Positions 5,845-61,489 of a DNA stretch of 64,000 nt are shown piece after piece. The notes beneath the pieces were generated by a model. It searched no databases. It was given only the letters and a program-made list of their open reading frames with translations, and was not told where the DNA came from. Within the stretch, counting starts at the first letter, position 1, and every line of letters starts with the position of its first letter. Both the position numbers and the translations under genes were made by a program. This DNA comes from Prauserella cavernicola (GTDB lineage: Bacteria; Actinomycetota; Actinomycetes; Mycobacteriales; Pseudonocardiaceae). The stretch is from contig NZ_JAENJH010000006.1 in the NCBI RefSeq assembly GCF_016595675.1, forward strand, positions 124,001-188,000, written 5' to 3'.

Positions 5845-5933
5845 GCGTGGAGGGAAGACCGGTGAGAGTCCGGGGCTGCCCCGCAACTGTGAGGTCCGCC
5901 GGGAGGTGGGCCGAAGCCAGATACCTCCACGCG
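5845..5933 (+). promoter_or_regulatory. Cobalamin riboswitch
   Basis: The conserved core is readable in order: GGAAGACCGGTGAGAGTCCGG, then CTGCCCCGCAACTGTGA (the catch-all CCCGCAACTGT), then GAAGCCAGATACCT at the 3' side. A closing P1 helix pairs CGCGTGGAGG (5845-5854) exactly with CCTCCACGCG (5924-5933). The segment between the core and the 3' element is short, so this is a compact member of the family. It faces the ABC importer operon starting at 6052, and the usual logic is repression of the genes when cobalamin is plentiful. Confidence 0.92.
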
Positions 5934-41053: not shown

Positions 41054-41125
41054 CTGCCCGTCGAGGAGTCGAACCTCGGTTTCCGCGTCCAGAGCGCGGC
41101 GTCGTGCCAATTGGACCAACGGGCA
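41054..41125 (-). tRNA. tRNA-Gln (CTG anticodon)
   Basis: 72-base cloverleaf: acceptor TGCCCGT/ACGGGCA, anticodon arm CCGCG-CTCTGGA-CGCGG with anticodon CTG, T arm CGAGG-TTCGACT-CCTCG, discriminator G. No CCA is encoded. Confidence 0.95.
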
Positions 41126-41140: not shown

Positions 41141-41213
41141 CTCCCGGTCCAGGACTCGAACCTGGGGCCAACGGATCCAAAGTCCGTGGTGCTGCCGCCT
41201 ACACCAACCGGGA
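41141..41213 (-). tRNA. tRNA-Gln (TTG anticodon)
   Basis: 73-base cloverleaf: acceptor TCCCGGT/ACCGGGA, anticodon arm ACGGA-CTTTGGA-TCCGT with anticodon TTG, T arm CCAGG-TTCGAGT-CCTGG, discriminator G. Confidence 0.95.
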
Positions 41214-41220
41214 AAGTGCG

Positions 41221-41294
41221 TGCCCCTGCCAGGAGTCGAACCTGGACTGGCCGCGTTCTGAGCGCGGTGCCTCTGCCAGTTGGGCTACAGGGGC
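41221..41294 (-). tRNA. tRNA-like gene with leucine anticodon CAG but class I body
   Basis: 74-base cloverleaf: acceptor GCCCCTG/CAGGGGC, D arm with GG, anticodon arm CCGCG-CTCAGAA-CGCGG (anticodon CAG), only a five-base variable loop CCAGT, T arm CCAGG-TTCGACT-CCTGG, discriminator A. Leucine tRNAs of bacteria have a long variable arm, so this is not an ordinary tRNA-Leu. All helices pair, so it is not obviously decayed. Confidence 0.8.
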
Positions 41295-41361
41295 GGTGCC
41301 GCCGTCCGGCCGAACCGGACCGGCGTTGGAGCCGAGCCCGGTGCTCGGCCGGGCGAGCTGG

Positions 41362-41435
41362 TGCGGCTCCGGGGAGTCGAACCCCGACTGGACTGGTTCT
41401 CGACCAGGTGCCTCTGCCGGTTGGGCTAGAGCCGC
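41362..41435 (-). tRNA. tRNA-like gene with leucine anticodon GAG, class I body and C33
   Basis: 74 bases: acceptor GCGGCTC/GAGCCGC, D arm near identical to its neighbour, anticodon arm CCTGG-TCGAGAA-CCAGT (one C-T mismatch at the base; anticodon GAG), variable loop CCAGT, T arm CGGGG-TTCGACT-CCCCG, discriminator A. The base before the anticodon is C instead of the nearly universal U33. Paralogue of the CAG gene at 41221. Confidence 0.75.
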
Positions 41436-60418: not shown

Positions 60419-61489
60419 GTGAGCTCTCTCCCCAAGTCCCGACTCCTGTCAGCGGCCGTGGCGTTGGTGTCCATCGCAGCGGTGGTGACCGGCTGTTCCC
60501 GCGCCGAGGACACGTCCGAGGGCGCGGCGCCCGCACAGAGCGAGGGGCCCGCCTCCGAGGTCCGGCTCGGTTACTTCCCCAACGTCACCCATGCTCCCGC
60601 GATCATCGGCGTGAACAACGGACTGTTCGCCGACGAGCTCGGTTCCACCACCTTGACCACACAGACCTTCAACTCGGGCACCGAAGAGGTCAACGCGCTG
60701 TTGGGTGGCTCGCTCGATATCGGCTTCATCGGCTCCGGTCCGGCCATCAACGCCTTCACCAAGTCCGAAGGCACCATCCAGATCGCCTCCGGCGCGGTCT
60801 CCGGTGGAGCCCAGCTGGTCGTGAAGCCGGACATCACCTCGAAGGACCAGCTGCGGGGCAAGACGATCGCGACCCCGTCGCTGGGCAATACCCAGGACGT
60901 CGCCCTCAAGAAGTGGCTCGACGAGAACGACCTCACCGATTCGGTCGAGGTCGCGAACTTGGACAACCCGCAGACCTTCGACGCGTTCCGCGGCGGCGAG
61001 GTCGACGGTGGCTGGCTGCCCGAGCCGTGGTCCTCGCGGCTGGTCGACGAAGCCGGTGCCCGCGTCCTGCTGGACGAGAAGGAACTGTGGCCGGACGGCA
61101 AGTTCCCCACGACGGTCATCGTGGTGCGCAGCGAGTTCCTCCAGCAGCATCCCGAGACCGTGAGGGGGATCGTGGCGGGTTCGCTGGCGGCGAGCGACTG
61201 GGCGAGCTCCAACCCCGACGAGGCCAGGACCACGGTGAACGACGGCATCAAGGAGCTCACCGGCAGTGAGCTGAGCCCGGCCGTGCTCGACCGGGCCTTC
61301 TCCAACATCACCCTCTCGTCGGACCCCAACAGCGCCACCTACACACAGCTGGCCAAGGACTCGGTGACCGCGGGCATCGTCGACACCCCGGCGGATCTTC
61401 AGGGATTCTTGGATCTGCGCCTGCTCAACGAGGTGCTGAAGGAACAGGGCAGGCCCGCCATCGACGCGGCCGATCTGCAGGCGAACTGA
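60419..61489 (+). CDS. ABC transporter substrate-binding lipoprotein, aliphatic sulfonate/nitrate type
   Basis: About 356 residues. Lipoprotein signal with VVTGC lipobox (Cys near residue 26), then an SsuA/TauA-like fold: VRLGYFPNVTHAPAIIGVNNGLF, FNSGTEEVNALLGGSLDIGFIGSGPAINAF, and KTIATPSLGNTQDVALKKWL. The GTG start at 60419 overlaps an out-of-frame ATG; GAAAGG is upstream. First gene of a three-gene importer; sulfonates are the best guess, nitrate and thiamine-precursor carriers share the fold. No SsuD monooxygenase gene is adjacent. Confidence 0.88.
   Translation: MSSLPKSRLLSAAVALVSIAAVVTGCSRAEDTSEGAAPAQSEGPASEVRLGYFPNVTHAPAIIGVNNGLFADELGSTTLTTQTFNSGTEEVNALLGGSLDIGFIGSGPAINAFTKSEGTIQIASGAVSGGAQLVVKPDITSKDQLRGKTIATPSLGNTQDVALKKWLDENDLTDSVEVANLDNPQTFDAFRGGEVDGGWLPEPWSSRLVDEAGARVLLDEKELWPDGKFPTTVIVVRSEFLQQHPETVRGIVAGSLAASDWASSNPDEARTTVNDGIKELTGSELSPAVLDRAFSNITLSSDPNSATYTQLAKDSVTAGIVDTPADLQGFLDLRLLNEVLKEQGRPAIDAADLQAN

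What the first reader, a model, noticed from the sequence alone, without database searches (positions are those of the whole stretch)
41221..41435. Two adjacent class I tRNAs with leucine anticodons CAG and GAG
Both genes fold as full cloverleafs of 74 bases with five-base variable loops, yet the anticodon loops read CAG and GAG. Bacterial tRNA-Leu is class II with a long variable arm, so leucyl-tRNA synthetase recognition is doubtful. The two share D arms and the CCAGT variable loop and are clearly paralogues; the GAG copy also has C33 in place of U33 and a mismatched first anticodon pair. They may insert another amino acid at Leu codons, serve a non-translational role, or be decaying. I recall reports of unusual Leu/Ile-anticodon tRNA-like genes in actinobacteria but cannot verify a match.
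Basis: partly seen in the sequence, partly recalled or inferred. Interest (0 to 1): 0.8.

Follow-up and report, generated by a model that had tools for sequence, protein, structure and literature searches.

The report
Spare leucine tRNAs from phage-like array
Two odd-looking leucine tRNA genes are spare copies in a small, phage-like tRNA cluster of an actinobacterium whose normal leucine tRNAs often lack the long arm too; the copies look functional and may keep protein synthesis going when the usual tRNAs are cut.

Summary
In detail: 41221-41294 and 41362-41435 (minus strand) are 74-base tRNA genes with anticodons CAG and GAG and five-base variable loops. The premise that this bars leucylation is wrong here: the genome's only Leu genes found for CAA, UAA and UAG are also class I, and one LeuRS passes the cut-off. 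Both window genes keep A73, A14, A15-U48 and G18G19. They form a four-gene cluster with second copies of Gln-CUG and Gln-UUG. Class I Leu-CAG/GAG genes occur in 55 of 297 family genomes and on 117 viral stretches, all holding further tRNA genes. Stems covary, so they are not decaying. In the listed relatives, accessory Leu-CAG, GAG and CAA have the opposite class to the housekeeping gene. The four housekeeping counterparts share the loop UUNNGGU (7 of 46 tRNAs); no window copy keeps it, nor do 83 array copies in relatives. Best reading: a spare set of phage-array descent that evades an anticodon nuclease. Descent is well supported; evasion is inference, and published VapC-mt11 data speak partly against it.

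The parts
41221..41294 (-). accessory tRNA-Leu(CAG), class I, loop CUCAGAA (A37)
41362..41435 (-). accessory tRNA-Leu(GAG), class I, loop UCGAGAA (C33, A37), pair 27-43 mismatched
41141..41213 (-). accessory tRNA-Gln(UUG), second copy, loop CUUUGGA
41054..41125 (-). accessory tRNA-Gln(CUG), second copy, loop CUCUGGA; 86% identical to tRNA-Gln of Rhodococcus phage RGL3, 63% to the genome's own housekeeping Gln-CUG

Best explanation
The two genes belong to a four-gene accessory tRNA cluster (Gln-CUG, Gln-UUG, Leu-CAG, Leu-GAG) that descends from phage or plasmid tRNA arrays and now sits among ordinary genes. Inferred mechanism: the cluster is transcribed, the Leu copies are charged with leucine by the cell's LeuRS, and they read CUG and CUC, the two commonest Leu codons. 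They duplicate isoacceptors the cell already has, but with a switched body (class I instead of class II) and an altered anticodon loop, so that they survive when an anticodon nuclease (a VapC-type toxin or another defence or phage RNase) cuts the housekeeping set. Shown here: sequence, array kinship, leucine elements, selection on stems, loss of the shared loop motif. Inferred: expression, charging, nuclease resistance. My estimates: array descent 0.9, leucine charging 0.85, evasion as the selected function 0.45.
For: Block order Gln-CUG, Gln-UUG, Leu-CAG, Leu-GAG in 6 genomes of 4 genera, the window's own included. Class I Leu-CAG/GAG genes in 55 of 297 family genomes, 14 of 46 genera; in 29 of the 30 three-kb loci fetched there, at least one more tRNA gene lies beside them. 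On viral contigs 117 of 117 stretches hold at least two tRNA genes, 110 at least four. Plasmid arrays of Nonomuraea (Leu-CAG class I) and Mycobacterium (Leu-UAG class I). A73, U48 and A14A15 invariant in 28 CAG and 24 GAG sequences; covariation. One LeuRS over the cut-off; class II Leu genes found only for CAG and GAG. 7 of 46 housekeeping loops are UUNNGGU; all four counterparts are in that set (post hoc chance 2e-4), no window copy is. In 39 array loci of relatives 0 of 83 copies of such isoacceptors keep the housekeeping loop, against 49 of 114 others. CUG+CUC = 337 of 371 Leu codons in 10 window genes. Two PIN-domain loci with VapB-like ORFs upstream. PMC6459853 (sections 7, 9, 10 and passages): VapC-mt11 cuts after GG following the anticodon and in vivo cuts only Gln-CUG and Leu-CAG.
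Against: In the same paper GG to GA only shifted the VapC-mt11 cut in tRNA-Pro and the base after GG did not matter, so the window loops are not predicted to resist that enzyme; both window Gln copies keep GG. In viral contigs not selected for Leu class, Leu-GAG keeps UUNNGGU in 5 of 12 and Leu-UAG in 7 of 19; a Mycobacterium plasmid array keeps it in Leu-UAG and in one of its two Gln genes. Array rows are related by descent, so the Fisher value overstates the case. Class opposition has a counterexample (plasmid Leu-UAA), and the housekeeping class itself varies: one same-order genome (G079) has single class II Leu-CAA and Leu-UAG genes. The phage search hit only the Gln genes of the cluster, not the Leu genes. 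No recurrent partner gene lies beside the arrays (344 crudely called ORFs in 21 regions, at most 4 regions share a family). No expression data; no promoter consensus found (actinobacterial promoters are poorly covered).
Confidence: 0.5

Rival explanations
1. Codon-supply genes: extra tRNAs for the most used Leu and Gln codons, raising translation capacity; class and loop changes are neutral consequences of phage ancestry.
For: CUG and CUC are 337 of 371 Leu codons and CAG 111 of 123 Gln codons in ten window genes; the isoacceptors are redundant with the chromosome.
Against: Extra supply would favour host-like copies, yet 83 of 83 array copies of this set depart from the host loop while 49 of 114 copies of other isoacceptors keep it. 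The common G36A37 combination loses the G36G37 context of the m1G37 modification (recalled).
Confidence: 0.25
2. Passenger remnant: a phage or plasmid tRNA array left behind by a mobile element, still well folded because it arrived recently and moves often, with no benefit to this host.
For: Patchy: 0 of 3 same-genus relatives match. Array contexts differ between genera. The compared neighbourhood shares only one gene with G003 by blastn.
Against: Changes on both sides at 12 and 8 stem pairs across many genera and a conserved block order show selection somewhere in the lineage.
Confidence: 0.2
3. Recoding or non-translational tRNAs: charged by another synthetase or used to donate an aminoacyl group outside the ribosome.
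For: A class I body with a Leu anticodon is unusual by the textbook; extra tRNAs are known to feed other pathways (recalled).
Against: A73, A14A15 and U48 in 52 of 52 sequences; the housekeeping class I Leu genes of the same genome must serve leucine. No partner gene recurs beside the arrays.
Confidence: 0.05

Closest known systems
tRNA array units of mycobacteria, their phages and plasmids (PMC5966550 and PMC6582537: passages; PMC12803027: passages and section 22)
   Same: Redundant isoacceptors with divergent bodies, tightly clustered, thought to spread horizontally, differing flanks; PMC6582537 reports a cluster Leu-UAG with a short variable loop beside a long-armed common copy.
   Different: Only four genes here and no HNH endonuclease among the ten neighbours scanned; in this family the class opposition concerns CAG, GAG and CAA.
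Phage tRNAs that evade anticodon nucleases through loop mutations (PMC10264068; passages)
   Same: Redundant tRNAs with changed anticodon loops relative to the host.
   Different: The window genes have ordinary neighbours (ten proteins scanned); the body class is switched too, which that main text does not mention (no occurrence of 'variable loop').
Class I tRNA-Leu (CAA, UAA, UAG) of Actinomycetota chromosomes
   Same: Same D-arm type, A15-U48, A73, five-base variable loop.
   Different: Anticodon CAG/GAG; in 198 phylum genomes class I genes found by pattern (in 40 genomes) carried CAA, UAA or UAG, apart from the window pair.

Membership tests
tRNA-Leu | tRNA fold and Leu anticodon | tested here: met
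tRNA-Leu | Leucine elements A73, A14, A15-U48, G18G19, A20a (PMC9976931, passages) | tested here: met
   A73, U48 and A14A15 in 28 of 28 CAG and 24 of 24 GAG sequences (one of 25 GAG left out). GG then N then A in the D loop in 28 of 28 CAG and 24 of 25 GAG, window pair included; L068 lacks it
tRNA-Leu | Long variable arm (class II), as usually stated for bacteria | tested here: not met
   Five-base loop; but CAA, UAA and UAG genes of the same genome also lack the arm, so it does not define the family here
tRNA-Leu | Charged with leucine | not testable with these tools
   one LeuRS over the cut-off makes it likely
tRNA array unit | Dense run of redundant, divergent tRNA genes | tested here: met
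   4 genes in 382 bases, all second copies
tRNA array unit | Large gene number (tens; exact published threshold recalled, not read) | tested here: not met
   4 genes; so called a cluster of array descent, not an array unit
tRNA array unit | Carried on phage, plasmid or other mobile element | tested here: inconclusive
   ten neighbouring proteins look ordinary; kin lie on viral contigs and plasmids
Anti-nuclease phage tRNAs | Loop altered relative to host tRNA | tested here: met
   4 of 4
Anti-nuclease phage tRNAs | Encoded by a phage | tested here: inconclusive
   no phage gene among ten neighbours scanned
Anti-nuclease phage tRNAs | Insensitive to the host nuclease | not testable with these tools
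   VapC-mt11 mutants in PMC6459853 give only partial support and partly speak against
tRNA pseudogene | Loss of stem pairing or of conserved positions | tested here: not met
   558 of 560 and 464 of 480 stem cells paired, shuffle maxima 92.5% and 90.8%

The most novel reading that the evidence does not exclude
The cluster is a purpose-built escape set: it keeps replacements for tRNAs whose loops read UUNNGGU, each changed in the loop and, for Leu, switched in structural class. This implies an undescribed tRNA nuclease in this family that reads the loop motif and the variable arm, and that body-class switching is a second route of evasion besides loop mutation.
Probability: 0.25. Interest if true: 0.75.

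Novelty: new variant of a known kind. Interest (0 to 1): 0.5.

Why it matters
It turns an apparent oddity into two checkable points. First, bacterial tRNA-Leu need not be class II: three of five Leu anticodons are served only by class I genes among the tRNAs found in this genome, and relatives show the same pattern, against the passage in PMC9976931 that tRNA-Leu has a long arm everywhere except animal mitochondria. Second, accessory Leu tRNAs in this family show class opposition and loss of one loop motif, which gives a concrete way to ask what accessory tRNAs are for: find the nuclease that tells the two sets apart.

Tried and rejected
Rejected: chance match; decay; a second LeuRS (of nine matches two are pieces of the one LeuRS and seven lie elsewhere below the cut-off, probably IleRS, ValRS and MetRS, not checked); hidden class II genes for CAA, UAA, UAG (the two extra pattern hits hold no tRNA by ARAGORN). 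Led nowhere: a shared partner gene beside the arrays; an empty site in the genus (one flanking gene has no match in G001-G003, and of the compared 18 kb only the luciferase-like gene aligns with the fetched G003 region); plasmid hit for the window cluster itself (none); solved structures for the two PIN proteins (one weak hit, none); promoter scan (none).

The idea that phage Leu tRNAs are mostly class I was dropped: in viral contigs picked by a Lys tRNA (62 of 122 loci used), 25 of 70 Leu genes are class I, and 3 of 17 for CAG/GAG.

Dropped rows: one search was given 40 loci (31 of the 55 genomes with class I CAG/GAG plus 9 second clusters), skipped 1 (L496, parse failure) and 4 of 201 tRNAs without a reference; one search left out 1 of 25 GAG sequences (L050, six-base variable loop); one search skipped 13, 3 and 2 loci in the viral sets, and its named set was 28 loci that I picked by organism name from the 80 listed, 26 used. 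The tables were cut by the tool; statements on them cover the listed rows, read by eye.

Full report
What is there. Two tRNA genes of 74 bases lie on the minus strand at 41221-41294 (anticodon CAG) and 41362-41435 (GAG); both pass the Rfam tRNA threshold and both have the variable loop CCAGT. They form one cluster with Gln-UUG (41141-41213) and Gln-CUG (41054-41125). Ten neighbouring proteins scanned against Pfam look ordinary: cupin, M23 peptidase, GPP34, luciferase-like, F420 oxidoreductase, PIG-L, mycothiol transferase, NlpC/P60, and two without a family.

Why class I is not odd here. I took the 46 tRNA genes outside the window that the Rfam search of the genome listed (the table showed exactly 50 matches and may be capped). 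Leu-GAG and Leu-CAG have class II genes; Leu-CAA, Leu-UAA and Leu-UAG have only class I genes. A separate pattern search for class II Leu D arms found the CAG and GAG genes plus two hits without a tRNA. One LeuRS exceeds the family cut-off. So the enzyme most likely accepts class I leucine tRNAs for UUR and CUA codons. In E. coli, leucine identity rests on A73, A15-U48, G18G19 and A20a, not on the variable arm (PMC9976931, passages), and the window genes keep these. PMC11541572 (passages) names Leu-2, 3 and 5 of M. tuberculosis as having long variable loops; that the other two are short is my inference.

Kinship. A pattern for class I Leu-CAG/GAG finds 55 of 297 family genomes and 14 of 46 genera, but none of the 3 other genomes of the genus. 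In 30 three-kb loci fetched there, 29 hold at least two tRNA genes and one holds one; twenty 20-kb regions hold 2 to 26. The window's block order recurs in G240, G267, G171, G166 and G335. Among 198 genomes of the phylum, class I Leu genes occur in 40 and carry CAA, UAA or UAG, except the window pair. Equal contig lengths (for example 246,854 and 555,798 bases) suggest that the family is Pseudonocardiaceae; this is inference. On viral contigs the pattern gave 117 stretches, all with at least two tRNA genes and 110 with at least four. A search of phage records with the cluster hit 13 records of seven phages, all through the Gln genes and none through the Leu genes; the window's Gln-CUG is 86% identical to tRNA-Gln of Rhodococcus phage RGL3, but 63% to its own housekeeping Gln-CUG. 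Plasmid records gave no match to the cluster.

Selection. Across 28 distinct CAG and 24 GAG sequences, 558 of 560 and 464 of 480 stem cells pair, above every one of 1000 shuffles (maxima 92.5% and 90.8%), with changes on both sides at 12 and 8 pairs. C33 occurs in 11 of 24 GAG sequences and the 27-43 mismatch in 13 of 24, so neither marks decay. In GAG copies C33 goes with A37: 20 of 26 against 1 of 23 with U33 in genome contigs, 14 of 18 against 12 of 66 in viral stretches (rows related).

Class opposition. In the listed rows, class II genes are CAG and GAG, or CAA in 12 genomes; those 12 CAA genes lie in tRNA clusters (3 in arrays, 9 in other clusters of 3 to 5 genes). Class I genes outside arrays carry CAA, UAA or UAG. 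Accessory copies thus have the opposite class for CAG, GAG and CAA. In a Mycobacterium plasmid array Leu-UAG is class I (PMC6582537 reports the same contrast; my pattern did not find the chromosomal Leu-UAG gene in four of five genomes of that family), but its Leu-UAA is class I as well, and class I Leu-UAA is also found in genomes of that family: a counterexample. One genome there, G079, has single class II Leu-CAA and Leu-UAG genes, so the housekeeping class varies between lineages. In a Nonomuraea plasmid array Leu-CAG is class I while another Nonomuraea's chromosome-sized record has it as class II. With three or four events by descent, chance cannot be excluded.

Loop motif. Of 46 housekeeping tRNAs, 7 have the loop UUNNGGU: Leu-GAG, Leu-CAG, Leu-UAG, Gln-CUG, Gln-UUG, His and Pro-CGG. 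All four window genes duplicate members of that set, and none keeps the motif (post hoc chance 2e-4). In 39 array loci of relatives, 0 of 83 copies of motif isoacceptors keep the housekeeping loop, against 49 of 114 others; Gln-CUG has A37 in 15 of 15 and Leu-CAG in 25 of 30, while the window's own Gln-CUG keeps G37. In 26 named actinobacterial loci outside the family the motif is absent from 22 Leu-CAG and 19 Leu-GAG copies. In viral contigs chosen by a Lys tRNA it is kept in 5 of 12 Leu-GAG and 7 of 19 Leu-UAG, so loss is not universal.

Mechanism. PMC10264068 (passages) proposes that phage tRNAs escape host nucleases by loop mutations. PMC6459853 (sections 7, 9, 10 and passages) shows that VapC-mt11 cuts after GG following the anticodon, that in vivo it cuts only Gln-CUG and Leu-CAG, and that its efficient in vitro targets include Leu-CAG, Leu-GAG and two Gln tRNAs (the second one's UUG anticodon I read from its printed probe). 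This set covers the window cluster, but also Pro, Arg and another Leu tRNA. Against it: GG to GA only shifted the cut, and the base after GG did not matter. The genome has two PIN-domain loci with VapB-like ORFs; one has a single weak match among solved structures, the other none. I therefore hold evasion as the best single function at about 0.45, not as shown.

Literature limits. I found no report of class-opposed accessory Leu tRNAs or of class I Leu-CAG/GAG in this family; searches: open-licence PubMed Central papers only, mostly seen as listings.

Noticed in passing
genome loci L032, L034, L036: Housekeeping tRNA-Leu CAA, UAA and UAG are class I; a passage of a 2023 review (PMC9976931) says tRNA-Leu has a long arm in all but animal mitochondria.
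   Followed up: yes
window 5851-5926 (+): Cobalamin riboswitch by Rfam, 35.8 bits against a gathering score of 31.5.
   Followed up: no
window 61210-61298 (-): ARAGORN calls a tRNA-Gly(GCC) of 89 bases that Rfam does not list; probably false.
   Followed up: no
whole genome G000: No tRNA-Lys(UUU) among the 50 listed tRNA matches; absent, missed, or lost to a cap of the table.
   Followed up: no
L486 and L487: Two PIN-domain genes each preceded by a VapB-like ORF ('VapB-like' judged by eye).
   Followed up: partly
viral contigs L131-L247: Leu tRNAs with G36 often have A37: Leu-CAG 37 of 57, Leu-UAG 22 of 33 (contigs selected for class I Leu-CAG/GAG), unlike the G37 of the three such housekeeping genes here.
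   Followed up: partly
named genome contigs L251, L253, L255, L276, L304: Class I Leu-CAG/GAG in tRNA clusters of Chloroflexi, Myxococcota and other phyla.
   Followed up: no
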